Positions 35,312 to 42,350 of a DNA stretch of 64,000 nucleotides are shown piece by piece. The notes beneath the pieces are model-generated. The model worked only from the letters and a program-made list of their open reading frames with translations. It searched no databases and was not told the DNA's origin. This DNA comes from Paludibacter propionicigenes WB4 (lineage in GTDB: Bacteria > Bacteroidota > Bacteroidia > Bacteroidales > Paludibacteraceae). Numbering within the stretch: the first letter of the stretch is position 1; every line of letters begins with the position of its first letter. The translations under genes were made by a program, and so were the position numbers. Where the stretch lies: positions 124,001 through 188,000 of the forward strand of contig NC_014734.1 of NCBI RefSeq assembly GCF_000183135.1, given 5' to 3'.

Positions 35312-35516
35312 GATATTGTCAAAATAGCTTACAAAAATAATATAAATTTGCCATCATTTTCCATCTTAGACTGCTTATCTTTGTGGCAGATATATTTTTC
35401 ATATAACACATTCGCACCCAAATTGCTCATTTTATATAGAATAATGATTTTTTCGAATAAAATAAGCCCGATTCCTTACAATCTATACAAAAATAACAAT
35501 TATTTCTTCCAAACTA

Positions 35517-35547
35517 TTTGAGGTTTCAATTTCTTGCCTTATCTTTG
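35517..35547 (+). promoter_or_regulatory. ilv operon promoter
   Basis: TTTG (35517-35520), 19-bp spacer, TATCTTTG (35540-35547). This is a full match to the Bacteroidetes -33/-7 pattern, and places the transcript start a few bases before the leader peptide ATG at 35570. Confidence 0.85.
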
Positions 35548-35569
35548 CAGCCGAAAAACAAACAAAATT

Positions 35570-35638
35570 ATGACTTCTCAACGCCTTTATACAATTCTTG
35601 TACTCGTCGTGCTTCTTTTGGTCAACAATCAGAGGTGA
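35570..35638 (+). CDS. ilvL: ilv leader peptide (attenuation)
   Basis: A 22-residue ORF too short for routine calling: M-T-S-Q-R-L-Y-T, then ten consecutive branched-chain residues (Ile9 to Val18: I-L-V-L-V-V-L-L-L-V), then N-N-Q-R and TGA. Eleven of 22 residues are Ile, Leu or Val. It starts about 22 nt after the -7 box and ends 32 nt before a strong terminator in front of ilvD. Together this is what a ribosome-stalling sensor of charged tRNA-Leu/Val/Ile looks like. The product itself is probably not functional as a protein. Confidence 0.9.
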   Translation: MTSQRLYTILVLVVLLLVNNQR

Positions 35639-35710
35639 GATGGTTACGTGTATAAATGTATGTTAAATACAAAAAACCTTTCTCACCATAACGGAGAAAG
35701 GTTTTTTATT
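35634..35710 (+). promoter_or_regulatory. ilv attenuator: terminator and competing antiterminator pairing
   Basis: Terminator stem: AAAAAACCTTTCTC (35671-35684) with GAGAAAGGTTTTTT (35694-35707), 14 bp, 9-nt loop, ending in the U run. The segment GGTGAGA (35634-35640), overlapping the leader stop codon, is exactly complementary to TCTCACC (35681-35687) in the terminator 5' arm and loop. A ribosome stalled on the Ile/Leu/Val codons would leave GGTGAGA free to break the terminator; one reaching the stop would cover it and let termination occur. The mechanism is inferred; the complementarity is direct. Confidence 0.85.
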
Positions 35711-35796
35711 TTGAGGGATTGCCCAAAGCCCTTATGGGATTTGGAAATGATGAGTTACTAACTAATTAAAATTCCCCTTAGGAATTACGAGGCTAT

Positions 35797-37629
35797 ATGA
35801 AACAAGAATTACGTAGTGCTACAAGCACAGGTGGTCGGAGAATGGCCGGAGCCCGCTCCCTTTGGCGTGCAAATGGTATGACTGACAAACAAATGGGAAA
35901 ACCTATTATTGCTATTGTAAATTCATTTACACAGTTTGTTCCCGGACATGTTCATTTGCATGAAATAGGTCAGAAAGTAAAAGCTGAAATAGAAAAACTT
36001 GGTTGCTTTGCAGCTGAATTTAATACGATAGCCATCGATGATGGAATAGCCATGGGACACGATGGAATGCTATATTCATTGCCATCGCGCGATATTATTG
36101 CTGACAGTGTGGAATACATGGTGAATGCTCATAAAGCTGATGCCATGGTTTGTATCAGTAATTGCGATAAAATTACTCCGGGAATGTTGATGGCAGCAAT
36201 GCGACTAAACATCCCGACTATTTTTGTTTCGGGAGGACCAATGGAGGCAGGAGAACTTGATGGAAAACATCTCGATTTGATTGACGCCATGGTACAATCG
36301 GCTGACGAAAGCGTATCCGATGATCAGGTGAAACGCATAGAGAATGCCGCTTGTCCAACTTGCGGATCTTGTTCAGGAATGTTTACGGCTAACTCCATGA
36401 ACTGCCTGAACGAGGCAATCGGACTGGCTTTGCCCGGAAATGGAACAATCGTAGCCACTCACGCAAACCGCACGCAACTATTCATCGATGCAGCTAAAAA
36501 GATCGTTGAGAATGCTAATAAATACTACTTTGATGGCGATGACAGCGTTTTGCCACGTTCCATCGCTACCCGTCAGGCTTTTCTGAATGCCATGAGGCTT
36601 GATATTGCCATGGGCGGATCTACCAATACAGTTCTTCATATTTTGGCTGTAGCACATGAGGCTGAAGTTGAGCTGACCATGGACGATATGGATTTCCTTT
36701 CTCGCCAAACTCCCTGCTTATGTAAAGTGGCTCCAAATTCTCAAAAATATCATATTCAGGACGTAAATCGAGCCGGTGGAATTTTGGGAATTCTGGCAGA
36801 ATTAAGCAAAGGTGGTTTACTTGATACTTCGGTTCGCCGGGTAGATGGTTTGACTTTGGCTGAAGCCATTGAACAATTTGATATTACCAGTCCTAAGGTT
36901 TCTGCCGTAGCGATTGAAAAATATAAGAGCGCACCTGCTCACAAATTCAATCTGGTAATGGGCTCTCAGCATACACAATATCCCGAACTGGACGGCGATC
37001 GAGTCAACGGTTGTATCCGTGACATTGAACACGCTTACACCAAAGATGGTGGATTGGGTATACTGAAGGGGAACATTGCGCAGGATGGATGCGTTATTAA
37101 AACCGCCGGTGTCGACGAAAGTATCTGGAAGTTTAGCGGACCAGCTAAAGTTTTCACTTCGCAGGATGCTGCGTGTGTGGGAATTTTGAAAGGCGATGTG
37201 GTTTCGGGCGATGTGGTGGTAATTACACACGAAGGTCCAAAAGGAGGACCGGGCATGCAGGAAATGTTATACCCAACGTCTTATATCAAATCAAAACATC
37301 TTGGAAAAGAGTGTGCTTTGATTACCGATGGTCGTTTTTCCGGTGGAACATCCGGCTTGTCTATCGGACATGTTTCGCCGGAGGCAGCATCCGGAGGAAA
37401 TATAGGATTGATTCAGAATGGTGATATTATCGAAATAGATATTCCAACCCGTTCAATTAATGTGAAAGTAAGCGAGCAAGAATTGCAAAAACGTCGCGAA
37501 GCTGAATTAGCCCGTGGCAAAGATGCATTCAAGCCTAAAGATAGAAATCGTGTCGTTTCAAAAGCCCTTCGTGCATACGCCAGCTTGGTAAGCTCTGCCG
37601 ATAAAGGTGCTGTGAGGATGATAGATTAA
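35797..37629 (+). CDS. ilvD: Dihydroxy-acid dehydratase
   Basis: Dehydrates 2,3-dihydroxy-3-methyl(butano/pentano)ate to the 2-keto acids leading to valine, leucine and isoleucine. 610 residues. Iron-sulphur cysteines are in [12 protein letters not shown] and [19 protein letters not shown], with the substrate-loop [20 protein letters not shown] near the C-terminus. First structural gene of the operon, 158 bp after the leader stop, preceded by a short AATTCC/GGAATT inverted repeat (35770-35786). Downstream, a 27-bp inverted repeat separates it from ilvB. Confidence 0.96.
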
Positions 37630-37754: not shown

Positions 37755-39455
37755 ATGGAAACAAAAACTAAAATAACAGGAGCTCACGCTTTTATGCAGG
37801 CTCTCGTAAAAGAAGGCGTAGATACCATATTTGGTTATCCGGGCGGTGCTATTATGCCCGTTTTTGATGCGCTTTACGATTACGATAAACATATAAATCA
37901 TATTCTTACACGTCACGAACAAGGAGCAACACATGCTGCTCAGGGTTACGCGCGTGTTTCGGGCAAAGTAGGGGTTTGTCTGGTTACTTCGGGACCTGCT
38001 GCAACCAATACCATTACCGGCATAGGCGATGCCATGTTGGACAGTACACCCATGGTGGTTATCACCGGTCAGGTTGCTACACCACTCTTAGGTACCGATG
38101 CTTTTCAGGAAATCGATGTGGTTGGTATCACACAGCCTATTACTAAATGGGCTTATCAGATTCGTCGCCCCGAAGATATAGCCTGGGCTGTTGCCCGTGC
38201 TTTTTACATAGCGCGTACCGGCCGTCCGGGTCCGGTTGTTCTTGACTTAGCTAAAAGTGCCCAAACTCAGGAAGTGGAATTTGAGTATAAACCCTGCACT
38301 TTTATTCGGAGTTATTTGCCAATTCCCGAATTACAACCTTCGCAGATTGAGGCTGCTGCTGCATTGATTAATGGAGCCAAAAAACCTTTTGCGTTGGTAG
38401 GTCAGGGAGTTGTATTGGCAAATGCAGAAGAGGAATTGAAAGTATTTTTAGAAAAAGGAAATATCCCGGCAGCCTGGACACTGCTTGGTGCTTCGGCTAT
38501 GTCAAGTGATTTCCCTTTGAATAAGGGTTTCTTGGGAATGCACGGAAACGTGGCTCCAAACATGAAGACCAATGAGTGCGATGTGTTGATAGCTATCGGG
38601 ATGCGTTTTGATGACCGTGTAACCGGTGATTTGAAAACGTATGCCAAACAGGCGAAAATTGTACATTTAGATATTGATGCGGCTGAAATTGGCAAGAACG
38701 TAATTCCTGATGCTCCGGTATTGGGAACGGCTAAAGAAACATTGCCGGCATTGACAGCTAAAATTAAAGAAGCGAAACATACTGAATGGATTGCTTCGTT
38801 TGAAGAATACGAAAAACTTGAATTTGAAAAAGTAATACAACGCGAAGTTTATCCTGAATCGGGTGAAATTACGATGGGTGAGGTTATTCATAAGGTATCG
38901 GAAGCTACCAAGAATAATGCGGTTATCGTAACGGATGTGGGACAAAATCAAATGCTTGCTGCACGATATTCAAACTATTCGCAGACTCGAAGTTTAGTTA
39001 CCTCCGGTGGTTTAGGTACCATGGGATTTGGTATTCCGGCTGCTATGGGTGCTAAAATGGGCGCTCCTGATCGTACGGTGTGTATGTTCAGTGGTGATGG
39101 CGGCTTCCAAATGACTATTCAGGAGCTGGGAACAATCATGCAGGAGCAAATCGGAGTGAAAATGATTATTTTGAACAATCATTTCCTTGGGATGGTGCGT
39201 CAATGGCAGGAAATGTTCTTCGAAGAACGTTATTCATTTACCGAAATGGTAAACCCCGACTTTATTGCTATTGCCAAAGCATATCGGATTGATGGAACCG
39301 AAGTTCATAAACGTGAAGAACTTGATGCTGCTATTGCTGACATGCTGAAAGATGATAAACCATATCTATTGGTTGTAAATGTAGAGAAAAAAGGCATGGT
39401 ATTCCCTATGGTTCCGGCCGGTGCTTGCGTTACTAACATTTTATTGGGAGATTAA
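37755..39455 (+). CDS. ilvB: Acetolactate synthase large (catalytic) subunit
   Basis: ThDP-dependent acetohydroxyacid synthase, 566 residues: makes acetolactate or acetohydroxybutyrate, the first common step of branched-chain synthesis. FGYPGGAIMPVFDAL with the catalytic Glu in HEQGATHAAQGYARVSG (about residues 55-70) opens the protein; the metal/ThDP site is GDGGFQMTIQELGT...NNHFLGMVRQWQ. Its stop is 4 bp before the small subunit start, so translation is coupled. Confidence 0.96.
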   Translation: METKTKITGAHAFMQALVKEGVDTIFGYPGGAIMPVFDALYDYDKHINHILTRHEQGATHAAQGYARVSGKVGVCLVTSGPAATNTITGIGDAMLDSTPMVVITGQVATPLLGTDAFQEIDVVGITQPITKWAYQIRRPEDIAWAVARAFYIARTGRPGPVVLDLAKSAQTQEVEFEYKPCTFIRSYLPIPELQPSQIEAAAALINGAKKPFALVGQGVVLANAEEELKVFLEKGNIPAAWTLLGASAMSSDFPLNKGFLGMHGNVAPNMKTNECDVLIAIGMRFDDRVTGDLKTYAKQAKIVHLDIDAAEIGKNVIPDAPVLGTAKETLPALTAKIKEAKHTEWIASFEEYEKLEFEKVIQREVYPESGEITMGEVIHKVSEATKNNAVIVTDVGQNQMLAARYSNYSQTRSLVTSGGLGTMGFGIPAAMGAKMGAPDRTVCMFSGDGGFQMTIQELGTIMQEQIGVKMIILNNHFLGMVRQWQEMFFEERYSFTEMVNPDFIAIAKAYRIDGTEVHKREELDAAIADMLKDDKPYLLVVNVEKKGMVFPMVPAGACVTNILLGD

Positions 39456-39459
39456 AATA

Positions 39460-40008
39460 ATGGAAACTAAATTATACACGATTACCATCTTTTCGGAAAA
39501 CACAGTGGGTTTGTTGGGGCAGATAACCATTATTTTTACCCGACGTTCCATTAATATCGAAACGCTTTCTGTGTCTCCATCGGCTATTAAAGGTATTCAT
39601 AAGTTTACAATAACGCTTTTTGCTACGGAAGATATAGTGTCGAAAGTGGTGAAGCAGATTGATAAACGAATTGATATATTAAAAGCATATTATAATACGG
39701 ATGAAGATTTGGTTTTCCAGGAGATAGCTTTATACAAAGTTGCTACTGAAAAACTGCTCGAAAAAGGCTCAATAGAAGATCTTGTCAGAAAATATCATAT
39801 CCGTATTCTGGAAATGAATAATGATTTTGTAGTTTTGCAAAAGGCCGGTCATTATAACGAAACCCAGCAAATGTTTGAGGAGTTGAGCGGGTCGATAGGT
39901 GTATTGCAGTTTATTCGTTCAGGACGTGTGGCTATTACCCGATCGAAGGTAGAGCGCCTGAGCGATATGCTGAACGCAATACAGGAAAAGTACGGAGAGA
40001 ATAATTGA
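39460..40008 (+). CDS. ilvN: Acetolactate synthase small (regulatory) subunit
   Basis: A 182-residue regulatory subunit giving valine feedback control. The ACT domain (about residues 1-75) reads YTITIFSENTVGLLGQITIIFTRR, with the Gly-Leu-Leu-Gly turn for effector binding; the C-terminal domain (about 90-182) follows. I place the start at the ATG at 39460 (METKLYT), directly after ilvB; an upstream in-frame ATG inside ilvB is unlikely. Confidence 0.93.
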   Translation: METKLYTITIFSENTVGLLGQITIIFTRRSINIETLSVSPSAIKGIHKFTITLFATEDIVSKVVKQIDKRIDILKAYYNTDEDLVFQEIALYKVATEKLLEKGSIEDLVRKYHIRILEMNNDFVVLQKAGHYNETQQMFEELSGSIGVLQFIRSGRVAITRSKVERLSDMLNAIQEKYGENN

Positions 40009-40021
40009 AAACATCGTTTCA

Positions 40022-40768
40022 ATGTCGTTAAAAAAAACATATTCATTTCAGATTCAACCGCAGTTTGTCGATTTTCAATTTCGTGCAACAATGTCTTCGT
40101 TGGGAGATATTTTGCTTACAACGGCTCAGTTTAATGCTGATGACAATGGTTTTGGACTGCGTCGCCTGAACGAAATGGACTGCTCGTGGGTGCTTACGCG
40201 TATGGCCATTGAGATGAACCGGTTTCCGGAACAATACGAGAATATTGAAGTGGAAACATGGGTGGAAGAAGTTGGGCGGGCCAACACGACTCGTAATTTT
40301 TGTATTCGGGATGCTAAGGGTGAAATTATTGGTAATGCATGTTCGGTATGGGTGTTTTTTGATATGAAAACGCGCCGCGCCAAGGATTTGCAAACGCTTG
40401 AGGGTATTCATGACTTTGCAAACGGCGAAGAAGGATTGATTGATAAACCCATTAAATTAGGAGCTGTTGATGGTGATGAATACGATGGTTTCAAGGTGAA
40501 ATACAGTGATATTGATATAAACGGACACGTTAATAGCATACGGTATATTCAATGGATAAGCGATTGCTTTTCATTGAGTTGTTACCGGAAATATCAGGTG
40601 AAGCGATTTGAAATAAACTATGTACACGAAATGCTGTATGGCGATTTTGTGGAAATTGTGGGGATGAAGGTTGAAGATAATGACTTTCGTTTTGAGATAA
40701 AGAAGGATGACAAAATTGCCTGTCGGGCAAGAGTGGTACTGATTCCTAACACTTCTACGGATCTCTGA
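40022..40768 (+). CDS. Acyl-ACP thioesterase (double hot-dog)
   Basis: Hydrolyses acyl-ACP to free fatty acid. 248 residues with two hot-dog halves: N-terminal FQIQPQFVDFQFRATMSSLGD and W-x-L-x-R (WVLTRMAIEMNRFP), then the C-terminal YSDIDINGHVNSIRYIQWI, which bears the Asn/His catalytic residues of the FatA/FatB type. It lies 13 bp after ilvN and before ilvC, a placement kept in many Bacteroidales. A link between branched-chain keto-acid supply and branched fatty acids is possible but inferred. Confidence 0.9.
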   Translation: MSLKKTYSFQIQPQFVDFQFRATMSSLGDILLTTAQFNADDNGFGLRRLNEMDCSWVLTRMAIEMNRFPEQYENIEVETWVEEVGRANTTRNFCIRDAKGEIIGNACSVWVFFDMKTRRAKDLQTLEGIHDFANGEEGLIDKPIKLGAVDGDEYDGFKVKYSDIDINGHVNSIRYIQWISDCFSLSCYRKYQVKRFEINYVHEMLYGDFVEIVGMKVEDNDFRFEIKKDDKIACRARVVLIPNTSTDL

Positions 40769-40871: not shown

Positions 40872-42350
40872 ATGGCAAATTATTTTAGCTCACTTCCTCA
40901 TCGCCTGAAAGTTCAGGAACTAGGAAAATGTGATTTTATGCAAAGCAGCGAATTCGCTGATGGAGTGAAAAAACTTATTGGAAAAAAGATCGTGGTGGTA
41001 GGCTGTGGTGCACAGGGTTTGGCTCAGGGTCTTAACATGCGCGACAGTGGTTTGGATATTTCTTATGCATTGCGTCAGGTAGCTATCGACCAAAAAAGGG
41101 CTTCTTATGAAAATGCTAAAAACAACAACTTTGTAGTCGGATCGTTCGAAGAATTGATTCCTACTGCCGATTTAGTAATGAATCTGGCACCTGATAAACA
41201 ACATACTTCGGTAGTAAATCAGGTAATGCCTTTGATGAAAAAAGGAGCTTGTTTATCTTATTCGCATGGTTTCAATATTGTGGAAGAAGGAACTCAAATC
41301 CGCAAAGATATTACAGTTATCATGGTGGCTCCAAAATCGCCTGCATCCGAAGTTCGTGCCGAATATCTTCGCGGTTTCGGTGTTCCTACGCTGATTGCCG
41401 TTCACCCGGAAAATGATCCGAATGGCGACGGATTGGAAATAGCCAAAGCTTATTGCGTGGGTACTGGCGGTCACAAAGCCGGTGTACTTCACTCTTCTTT
41501 CGTGGCTGAAGTAAAATCGGATTTGATGGGTGAGCAAACTATTCTTTGCGGACTGCTGCAAACCGGTTCTATCCTTTCTTTCAACAAAATGGTTGAAAAA
41601 GGAATTGATCCTGCTTATGCATCGAAGTTGGTTCAATATGGTTGGGAAACTATTACCGAAGCCTTGAAAATTGGTGGTATCACCAATATGATGGATCGTC
41701 TTTCTAATCCTGCTAAAATTGAAGCGTTTAAATTGGCTGAAGAGCTTAAAGATATTATGCGTCCATTGTTTATCAAGCACATGGATGATATTTTGTCTGG
41801 CGAATTCTCTAAAACCATGATGGAAGACTGGGCTGCAGGCGACAAAAACTTGTTGACATGGCGTGCCGAAACAGGTGAAACAGCATTCGAAAAAACTCCT
41901 GCAGGTGATGTTGAAATCTCGGAACAAGAGTATTTTGATAATGCTACATTGATGGTTGCGTTTATCAAAGCAGGTGTTGAGTCGGCTTACGAAACTATGA
42001 CTTGTTCGGGTATCAAGAACGAATCGGCTTACTACGAATCGTTGCACGAAACTCCACTTATTGCCAACACCATTGCACGCAAGAAATTGTTCGAAATGAA
42101 CCGCGTTATCTCCGACACGGCTGAGTACGGTTGCTACTTGTTCGATCATGCATGTAAACCGCTTTTGGCTGACTTTATGAAGAAAATTGATACCAACGTT
42201 ATTGGTAAAAACTTCAATGCTAGCAGTAACGGACGTGTTGATAACTTCGAATTGGTAAAAGTCAATGCGGCTATCCGTAATCATTCAATCGAAATTTGTG
42301 GTGCTGAGCTTCGTGCTGCCATGACTGCGATGAAAAAAATTGTAGAATAA
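40872..42350 (+). CDS. ilvC: Ketol-acid reductoisomerase (class II, long form)
   Basis: Isomerises and reduces acetolactate with NADPH. 492 residues marks the class II (long) type. The Rossmann loop is [20 protein letters not shown] (about residues 43-62); Mg-binding acidic residues lie in [15 protein letters not shown] (about 215-229), and a second knotted domain occupies the C-terminal half. Last gene of the operon, followed by a hairpin and terminator. Confidence 0.95.

What the first reader, a model, noticed from the sequence alone, without database searches (positions are those of the whole stretch)
35517..35797. A complete branched-chain amino acid attenuator ahead of the ilv operon
Directly visible: a consensus Bacteroidetes promoter (TTTG-19-TATCTTTG), a 22-codon ORF with ten consecutive Ile/Leu/Val codons (35594-35623), a 14-bp terminator with U run, and a 7-nt segment (35634-35640) over the leader stop that is exactly complementary to the terminator's 5' arm and loop. 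Leader-peptide attenuation of ilv is established in Enterobacteria; this arrangement in a Bacteroidetes gene order, with the antiterminator segment overlapping the leader stop codon, is a compact two-state version. The ribosome-sensing mechanism is inferred.
Basis: partly seen in the sequence, partly recalled or inferred. Interest (0 to 1): 0.75.

Follow-up and report, generated by a model that had tools for sequence, protein, structure and literature searches.

The report
Leader-peptide switch before ilv operon
A tiny leader gene packed with isoleucine, leucine and valine codons sits in front of a branched-chain amino acid operon and very probably lets the ribosome switch transcription on when these amino acids run short; the mechanism is of a known kind, but it recurs in many related bacteria, some of which carry two such switches in a row.

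Summary
Between a Bacteroidetes-type promoter and ilvD lies a 22-codon ORF (35570-35638) with ten consecutive Ile/Leu/Val codons, an 11-bp antiterminator whose 5' arm overlaps the leader stop, and a terminator with a U run. By my scan 64 of 110 ilvD loci (62 without duplicates) carry such a leader, against 0 of the 17 labelled as other phyla. Antiterminator and terminator fit their own locus better than swapped partners (0 of 5000 permutations), and two antiterminator pairs change on both sides in 9 cells (0 of 500 shuffles). In a folding scan of the window's leader, stalling at any of the ten codons leaves the antiterminator free; a ribosome at the stop masks it. Best reading: classical ribosome-mediated transcription attenuation, a new member of a known kind. 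Extensions: the same genome has similar leaders before leuA (Leu/Ile), pheA (Phe/Tyr) and trpB (Trp, an Rfam Bacteroid-trp hit), and ten loci in related genomes carry two Ile/Leu/Val leader-terminator units in series. Nothing was tested by experiment.

The parts
35517..35547 (+). Predicted promoter: TTTG (-33), 19 nt, TATCTTTG (-7)
Evidence: Sequence; TANNTTTG lies within 70 nt upstream of the leader ATG in 53 of 61 related loci with enough sequence, against 4.6% of base-shuffled regions; 51 of 61 also have a TTG box at a fitting distance.
35570..35638 (+). Leader peptide ORF, 22 codons + TGA: MTSQRLYTILVLVVLLLVNNQR
   Evidence: no NCBIfam or Pfam family matches it
35594..35623 (+). Regulatory codons: ten consecutive Ile/Leu/Val codons (I L V L V V L L L V)
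   Evidence: leaders with at least 7 of 10 Ile/Leu/Val plus a terminator in 64 of 110 ilvD loci
35615..35635 (+). Possible protector (1:2) hairpin, 35615-35622 with 35628-35635; the 5' arm lies in the Leu16-Leu17-Val18 codons
   Evidence: RNAalifold consensus of 28 sequences; 99.1% of cells paired, slid versions 37.9-67.9%; 3 of 8 pairs invariant, 5 vary on one side only, none on both, 500 of 500 shuffles as high; the minimum-energy fold of the unoccupied leader contains a related, extended helix
35634..35645 (+). Antiterminator 5' arm (2), overlapping the last sense codon and the leader stop
   Evidence: Duplex with 35675-35687, -16.6 kcal/mol, 1 of 200 shuffles as good; own-versus-swapped permutation; two-sided changes in relatives
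35671..35712 (+). Intrinsic terminator (3:4): stem 35671-35685 / 35693-35707, loop 35686-35692, U run from 35702; its 5' arm and loop are also the antiterminator 3' arm
   Evidence: a 12-bp core pairs in 99.7% of cells of the genus-level alignment, 49 of 500 shuffles as high
35797..37629 (+). ilvD, dihydroxy-acid dehydratase, first gene behind the attenuator
   Evidence: NCBIfam TIGR00110 786.5 bits, cut-off 618.15
37755..39455 (+). acetolactate synthase large subunit (ilvB)
   Evidence: NCBIfam TIGR00118 704.5 bits, cut-off 538.35
39460..40008 (+). acetolactate synthase small subunit (ilvN); start placed at the first ATG of the frame
   Evidence: NCBIfam TIGR00119 74.3 bits, cut-off 56.9 (frame searched from 39454)
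40022..40768 (+). thioesterase-like gene between ilvN and ilvC
   Evidence: TIGR00051 32.1 bits, below its cut-off of 68.7
40872..42350 (+). ilvC, ketol-acid reductoisomerase
   Evidence: NCBIfam TIGR00465 421.2 bits, cut-off 226.15

Best explanation
A ribosome-mediated transcription attenuator of the ilvD-ilvB-ilvN-(thioesterase-like)-ilvC gene run. RNA polymerase starts a few bases after 35547 and a ribosome translates the 22-codon leader. When charged tRNA-Ile, -Leu or -Val is scarce the ribosome stalls inside 35594-35623, which leaves 35634-35645 free to pair with 35675-35687, so the terminator cannot close and the operon is transcribed. When the amino acids are plentiful the ribosome runs to the stop codon at 35636, covers the antiterminator arm, the terminator 35671-35707 forms and transcription ends near 35710. 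The sequence elements, their recurrence in relatives and their co-variation are shown; transcription start, co-transcription of the genes, translation of the leader, stalling and termination are inferred.
For: Ten contiguous Ile/Leu/Val codons in a leader ORF directly before ilv genes. 64 of 110 ilvD loci (62 without duplicates) have an ATG leader with at least 7 of 10 Ile/Leu/Val plus a terminator: 28 of 30 from the genome search and 36 of the 63 named contigs labelled Bacteroidota, against 0 of 17 labelled otherwise, three of which have under 180 nt upstream. The antiterminator beats at least 190 of 200 shuffles in 53 of 62. Own-locus duplexes average -17.15 kcal/mol against -14.34 for permuted partners, 0 of 5000 permutations as good; likewise 0 of 5000 for the 34 loci outside the genus-level group. 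Two-sided changes in 9 cells of the 7-bp core in 22 of the 62 loci, 0 of 500 shuffles. Footprint scan of the window: before the terminator 3' arm is made, the antiterminator forms with the A site at codons 3-18, which includes all ten Ile/Leu/Val codons (9-18), and is gone at codon 22 and the stop; in relatives the stop masks it in 54 of 62. A covariance model of the leader, which knows nothing of ORFs, hits 104 of 295 genomes of the order at E <= 0.01; the 29 new loci that were fetched, one per genome from the best-scoring genomes, lie before ilvD (19), leuA (8) or ilvB (2), genes named by eye, and 27 of 29 have an ATG leader with at least 7 of 10 Ile/Leu/Val. Further leaders in the same genome match their operons: Leu/Ile before leuA, Phe/Tyr before pheA, Trp-Trp-Trp before trpB.
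Against: No transcript, ribosome-profiling or reporter data. In the full-length minimum-energy fold the terminator wins whatever the ribosome position, so the switch must be kinetic. Core codons were at least 80% permissive in 46 of 62 relatives, and both criteria held in 40 of 62. The antiterminator did not reach the shuffle criterion in 9 of 62. Within the genus-level alignment there is one two-sided change each in antiterminator and terminator, none in the 7-bp core. The permutation and shuffle tests do not remove shared ancestry. 27 of 63 Bacteroidota-labelled ilvD contigs show no such unit by my rule, among them several labelled Prevotella or Prevotellaceae; some are cut short or use another start codon. 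191 of 295 order genomes have no model match at E <= 0.01. The footprint edge (A site + 11 nt) is an assumption.
Confidence: 0.92

Rival explanations
1. The ORF encodes a small hydrophobic membrane peptide (for example a stress or toxin-like peptide) and its Ile/Leu/Val content reflects a membrane span; the terminator simply ends its own short mRNA.
For: The run ILVLVVLLLV is hydrophobic enough for a membrane segment; the ORF has its own promoter-like site and terminator.
Against: Matching codon biases before leuA, pheA and trpB in the same genome; covariance-model hits, found without regard to the neighbouring gene, before BCAA genes in 29 of 29 fetched loci; arms that fit the terminator of the same locus; CTTTTGGTC identical in 28 of 28 genus-level sequences, synonymous sites included. 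That the leaders lie before ilvD is no argument, since those loci were found by ilvD.
Confidence: 0.03
2. An RNA switch that senses a ligand, tRNA (T-box) or protein directly; the ORF is incidental.
For: Alternative terminator/antiterminator structures are shared with riboswitches and T-boxes.
Against: Only a tRNA elsewhere in the window reaches an Rfam gathering score; at 35450-35800 the 20 matches with E up to 10 all lie far below their gathering scores, and the one peptide leader among them is Phe_leader at 20.0 bits against 55. The Ile/Leu/Val run recurs while much of the leader diverges.
Confidence: 0.03
3. Leader translation controls the operon mainly through translation coupling or reinitiation at ilvD rather than through termination.
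For: Short leader ORFs close to start codons are common in Bacteroidetes among others and have been proposed to aid reinitiation (PMC4833913, passages read).
Against: The leader stop is 158 nt before ilvD with a terminator between them, whereas that paper's peak for Bacteroidetes is at 11-14 bp; leader-to-gene distance varies widely between relatives; the pairing partner that recurs is the terminator.
Confidence: 0.02

Closest known systems
Classical amino-acid leader-peptide attenuators of Enterobacteria (trp, ilvGMEDA, ilvBN, leu, pheA, his, thr; recalled, not compared by sequence except through Rfam)
   Same: Leader peptide rich in the codons of the regulated pathway, antiterminator and terminator that exclude each other, stop codon placed so that the ribosome masks the antiterminator arm; protector hairpin possible
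   Different: No Rfam leader family reaches its gathering score; promoter of the Bacteroidetes type; protector weak or absent in most relatives by folding
Bacteroid-trp leader (Rfam RF01692; listed in PMC2864571, table passage)
   Same: Peptide leader of Bacteroidota before trp genes; the window's own genome carries one before trpB (L159, 62.5 bits, gathering 49)
   Different: Codes Trp, not Ile/Leu/Val; the ilv leader does not match that model
ilvBNC attenuators of Corynebacterium / Actinobacteria (PMC11857589, PMC10272879: search listing and start of abstract; PMC1262725: listing, start of abstract and reference-list passages)
   Same: Leader ORF or alternative hairpins before ilv genes
   Different: Other phylum; not compared by sequence here
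Structured 5' regions with leader-peptide clues before amino-acid operons in Flavobacterium psychrophilum (PMC9723704, passages read)
   Same: Same phylum; a leader-peptide attenuation mechanism proposed from a transcriptome map
   Different: The passages read name no ilv leader; its supplementary tables were not seen
mgtCBR tandem attenuators of Salmonella (PMC3641672, abstract and outline read)
   Same: Two leader-ORF attenuators in one leader, comparable with the tandem arrangement in relatives
   Different: There the two units sense different signals (ATP, proline); in the tandem loci here both leaders are Ile/Leu/Val-rich. The window itself has one unit.

Membership tests
Ribosome-mediated amino-acid leader-peptide attenuator | Short leader ORF with a run of codons for the pathway's end products | tested here: met
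   10 of 10 consecutive Ile/Leu/Val codons; only such ORF+terminator unit in the window
Ribosome-mediated amino-acid leader-peptide attenuator | Intrinsic terminator between leader and first structural gene | tested here: met
   35671-35707 + U run; termination itself not measured
Ribosome-mediated amino-acid leader-peptide attenuator | Antiterminator that excludes the terminator | tested here: met
   11 bp, 1 of 200 shuffles as good; swapped-partner permutation 0 of 5000; two-sided changes 0 of 500 shuffles
Ribosome-mediated amino-acid leader-peptide attenuator | Geometry: a stall at the regulatory codons frees, and a ribosome at the stop masks, the antiterminator arm | tested here: met
   Met for the window with an assumed footprint; over relatives stop masks in 54 of 62, core permissive in 46 of 62, both in 40 of 62
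Ribosome-mediated amino-acid leader-peptide attenuator | Protector (1:2) hairpin | tested here: inconclusive
   8 bp, 99.1% of cells paired, but one-sided changes only and shuffles as high; ensemble effect in 9 of 28 and 3 of 34 loci
Ribosome-mediated amino-acid leader-peptide attenuator | Leader translated; transcription read-through rises on amino-acid limitation | not testable with these tools
   No expression data
Bacteroid-trp leader RF01692 | Match to the covariance model above gathering score | tested here: not met
   Only a tRNA reaches gathering in the window; the model hits the trp leader L159 instead
T-box or riboswitch | Match to a known aptamer or T-box model | tested here: not met
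   20 matches at 35450-35800 with E up to 10, all far below gathering, no T-box among them

The most novel reading that the evidence does not exclude
The window shows one piece of a phylum-wide system: Bacteroidota use leader-peptide attenuation as a general control of amino-acid operons (Ile/Leu/Val, Leu/Ile, Phe/Tyr, Trp, and in one genome Met/Cys before a gene that looks like an O-acetylhomoserine sulfhydrylase), and several lineages stack two Ile/Leu/Val attenuators in series before one ilv gene, with a promoter-like site before the first only or before neither, so that polymerase must pass two ribosome-controlled gates reading the same pathway: a steeper, two-stage attenuator.
Probability: 0.45. 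Interest if true: 0.7.

Novelty: new member of a known kind. Interest (0 to 1): 0.48.

Why it matters
Leader-peptide attenuation is textbook in Enterobacteria (recalled). A 2010 paper stated that, to its authors' knowledge, no such system had been shown outside Proteobacteria and Actinobacteria before the histidine leaders of bacilli that it reports (PMC2965389, passages read). An ilv attenuator that recurs through an order rich in gut and sediment anaerobes means amino-acid supply is probably read directly by the ribosome there. It gives an annotation rule for unannotated Ile/Leu/Val leaders, a ready-made amino-acid-responsive genetic part, and in the tandem loci a natural test of whether two attenuators in series sharpen the response.

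Tried and rejected
One search scanned genome-search loci without turning the minus-strand ones, so its negatives among L003-L030 are wrong where the match was on minus; one search replaced it. L010 and L043 have a leader-like ORF with a GTG start, and L014 and L046 are cut by contig ends; none of these four counts as positive. Membrane peptide, T-box/riboswitch and reinitiation: see rivals. His and Thr attenuators were looked for in the own genome: no His-rich ORF in the upstream part of the hisG locus and no such ORF before the aspartokinase-homoserine dehydrogenase gene, by my scan with ATG starts. Of 13 own-genome hits of the covariance model, 10 were read: three are leaders (ilv, leu, phe), one is the ilv terminator on the other strand, and six look like plain terminators or chance. 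Of the order hits below the best, four single places were read: three leaders (leuA, ilvD, leuA) and one plain terminator, besides the two tandem places. Of 29 phylum-level loci read, 8 have Ile/Leu/Val leaders before ilv genes, 7 Trp leaders before trpE, 1 a Met/Cys leader, 1 an Ile/Leu/Val ORF before an unrelated gene, and 12 no such leader by my rule, two of them before a threonine-dehydratase-like gene (genes named by eye). The other hits were not read. The extra unit at L036 (-750) was set aside as probable chance. In one search the length of the trp leader was entered two codons short, so its printed distance to the stop is off; its duplex test is little affected. The 22 loci of alignment A2 were chosen by me from the 62, mostly loci whose antiterminator arm lies at the leader stop. 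Two papers that I recall as relevant (Vitreschak 2004, whose abstract I recall as naming some Bacteroidetes/Chlorobi candidates; Lopatovskaya 2010) are not held, so priority for Bacteroidetes attenuators cannot be judged.
Full report
WHAT IS THERE. The window is G000:C1:124001-188000 of a single-contig genome of 3,685,504 bases, the size printed for Paludibacter propionicigenes WB4T (PMC3072083, abstract and passages); the name rests on that equality and on Paludibacter-labelled relatives. Promoter-like TTTG-19-TATCTTTG at 35517-35547; ATG 35570; MTSQRLYTILVLVVLLLVNNQR; TGA 35636-35638; Ile/Leu/Val codons 35594-35623; antiterminator arm 35634-35645; terminator 35671-35707 with U run. Behind it come ilvD, the acetolactate synthase large and small subunits, a thioesterase-like gene and ilvC. 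The leader peptide matches no NCBIfam or Pfam family, and no Rfam family reaches its gathering score in the leader.

MORE THAN CHANCE. The 171-nt leader folds at z -4.0, 1 of 200 shuffles as good. A mechanical scan of both strands of the window for such an ORF followed by a terminator finds this one only. In nine window ORFs GTC is 6% of Val codons and CTC 6% of Leu codons, yet the run uses GTC twice and CTC once; the sample is small and base pairing could equally explain it.

RELATIVES. IlvD was found in 47 of 60 related genomes (30 loci fetched) and 80 further loci came from named contigs (which kept the best 80 of a capped list). Of these 110 loci, 64 (28 of 30 and 36 of 80) have an ATG leader with at least 7 of 10 Ile/Leu/Val residues plus a terminator; two are duplicates, leaving 62. 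By title 17 of the 80 contigs are not Bacteroidota and none of these has it, though three of them have under 180 nt upstream; 36 of the other 63 do (titles). TANNTTTG lies within 70 nt upstream of the leader ATG in 53 of 61, ending 17-37 nt before it. The peptide diverges apart from the Ile/Leu/Val run; Bacteroides- and Phocaeicola-labelled loci have forms such as NLAVLHIIRVVVV.

PAIRINGS. The stretch around the leader stop pairs with the terminator 5' arm and loop better than at least 190 of 200 shuffles in 53 of 62 loci, commonly with the 5' arm at the stop codon; 9 of 62 do not reach that. The arms belong together: own-locus duplexes average -17.15 kcal/mol against -14.34 +/- 0.27 for permuted partners, 0 of 5000 permutations as good; for the 34 loci outside the genus-level group -17.67 against -13.53, 0 of 5000; against partners with clearly different terminators, own is better than the median in 54 of 62, in the top tenth in 20 and best of all in 11. 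In alignment A2 (22 of the 62 loci, my choice) the 7-bp core pairs in 84.0% of cells (shuffles 78.1%, slid versions 38.3-64.9%) with 9 cells changed on both sides (shuffles 3.3); 0 of 500 shuffles reach either value. The two-sided changes fall in the two outer pairs, whose 3' partners lie in the terminator loop of the window; the number of such pairs and of pair types is not unusual (325 and 388 of 500 shuffles as high). Relatedness is not removed by any of these tests. In the 28-sequence genus-level alignment A1 (27 of L001-L030 plus L034) the terminator core pairs in 99.7% of cells (49 of 500 shuffles as high), the antiterminator in 95.0% (22 of 500) and the protector in 99.1% (500 of 500), with one, one and no pair changed on both sides.

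GEOMETRY. Folding the RNA left free by a ribosome (front edge taken as A site + 11 nt) before the terminator 3' arm is made: with the A site at codons 3-18 the antiterminator forms (13 pairs counted); it shrinks at codons 19-21 and is gone at codon 22 and the stop. The Ile/Leu/Val run is codons 9-18, so it ends where masking begins. In relatives the stop masks the antiterminator in 54 of 62, the core codons are at least 80% permissive in 46 of 62, and both hold in 40 of 62. The full-length minimum-energy fold is the terminator at every ribosome position, so the choice has to be made during transcription.

TWO OR THREE STRUCTURES. The window's unoccupied leader has a minimum-energy fold in which Ile/Leu/Val codons pair with the antiterminator arm, and CTTTTGGTC is identical in all 28 genus-level sequences, which suggests a constraint beyond the peptide. 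The ensemble is less clear: expected antiterminator pairs without a ribosome are 8.1 against 11.9 with a mid-run stall for the window's own locus, and fall below half in only 9 of 28 genus-level loci and 3 of 34 others; by minimum-energy folds the count is 21 of 62. Many relatives may therefore lack a working protector, and failure to translate the leader would then switch the operon on rather than off, unlike trp of E. coli (recalled).

SPECIFICITY AND SISTERS. A covariance model from A1, which knows nothing of ORFs, hits 104 of 295 genomes of the order at E <= 0.01. The 29 new loci fetched, one per genome from the best-scoring genomes, lie before ilvD (19), leuA (8) or acetolactate synthase (2), judged by eye from the protein start; 27 of 29 have an ATG leader with at least 7 of 10 Ile/Leu/Val (L131 has 6; in L127 none was found). 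In the own genome the model also finds MNKNYLHILLLGIIILLQNK before leuA and MVNRFFTYFYFYFYFNR before genes whose best NCBIfam matches are prephenate dehydratase, an aminotransferase and a DAHP synthase, the last three below the families' cut-offs. The trp genes start with MNSILTVNKFWWWHLRIS (read from the sequence) before trpB, and this leader matches Rfam Bacteroid-trp at 62.5 bits. The antiterminators of leu, phe and trp were matched by 0, 0 and 8 of 300 shuffles (the trp test used nearly the whole terminator as partner). No His or Thr leader was found. Over the phylum 32 of 296 genomes hit at E <= 0.001; 29 loci were read, with 8 Ile/Leu/Val leaders before ilv genes, 7 Trp leaders before trpE, 1 Met/Cys leader, 1 Ile/Leu/Val ORF before an unrelated gene and 12 without.

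TANDEM UNITS. Ten loci carry two Ile/Leu/Val leader-plus-terminator units before one ilv gene: 3 of the 110 ilvD loci (L088, L090, L093), 6 of the 29 model loci (L128, L130, L134 = L150, L136, L139, L140) and L151, which was fetched because two hits lay side by side. They come from contigs labelled Labilibaculum, Marinifilum and Marinifilaceae and from five anonymous families, which may overlap with those. Nine of the ten were tested for pairing: 15 of 18 units have an antiterminator matched by at most 5 of 300 shuffles; the exceptions are L088 unit 1 (17), L088 unit 2 (42) and L093 unit 1 (14). A TANNTTTG site lies before unit 1 in 5 of 10 and before unit 2 in 0 of 10, which fits serial gating. 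A further pair of hits whose starts lie 158 nt apart is in a genome of another order of the class (G354). [quoted passage not shown] One full-text search ('tandem attenuators', 'leader peptide'; 15 of 3,337 papers listed) showed three papers with the phrase, of which I opened only that one.

LITERATURE. Judged by titles and abstract starts of the papers listed, and by the passages opened, I saw no description of an ilv leader in Bacteroidales. The lists were cut, and most subscription papers are not held, so this is no proof of absence. Closest are the F. psychrophilum transcriptome (passages), the B. thetaiotaomicron map, which mentions sORFs reminiscent of leader peptides (passages), and Bacteroid-trp (table passage).

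VERDICT. The finding is correct and well supported as an anatomical and comparative statement. It is a new member of a known kind, of moderate interest by itself; its setting (a suite of such leaders, possible two-state logic, and tandem units in relatives) is what deserves follow-up.

Noticed in passing
L150 (G251:C68), L151 (G141:C25), L088, L090, L093, L128, L130, L136, L139, L140: Two Ile/Leu/Val leader-plus-terminator units in series before one ilvD or ilvB gene, with a promoter-like site before the first only (5 of 10) or before neither (5 of 10).
   Followed up: partly
L114 / L162 (G000:C1 about 1806.5 kb, minus): Leader MVNRFFTYFYFYFYFNR with alternating Phe and Tyr codons, antiterminator and terminator before a prephenate-dehydratase-like gene, an aminotransferase and a DAHP-synthase-like gene: a candidate dual Phe/Tyr attenuator.
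   Followed up: partly
L112 / L161 (G000:C1:47405-47530): Leader MNKNYLHILLLGIIILLQNK (Leu/Ile, no Val) with attenuator before leuA.
   Followed up: partly
L159 (G000:C1 about 3448.5 kb): Trp-Trp-Trp leader before trpB, matching Rfam RF01692 Bacteroid-trp at 62.5 bits.
   Followed up: yes
L189 (G615:C18:56750-56886, minus): Leader MMPMCMMMCCCCAKSTC..., rich in Met and Cys codons, with a terminator-like hairpin, before a gene that looks like an O-acetylhomoserine sulfhydrylase (named by eye); seen in one genome only.
   Followed up: no
L177 (G354:C23:497055-497318): Two leaders in series with almost only Ile codons in their runs before an ilvN-like gene (named by eye) in another order of the class.
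   Followed up: no
window 40022-40768: A thioesterase-like gene (below the NCBIfam cut-off) sits among the ilv genes between ilvN and ilvC.
   Followed up: no
window 35717-35785: Short inverted repeats of the kind CCC-TTA-GGG between terminator and ilvD; by eye, similar small repeats stand near other leaders of this genome and of relatives.
   Followed up: no
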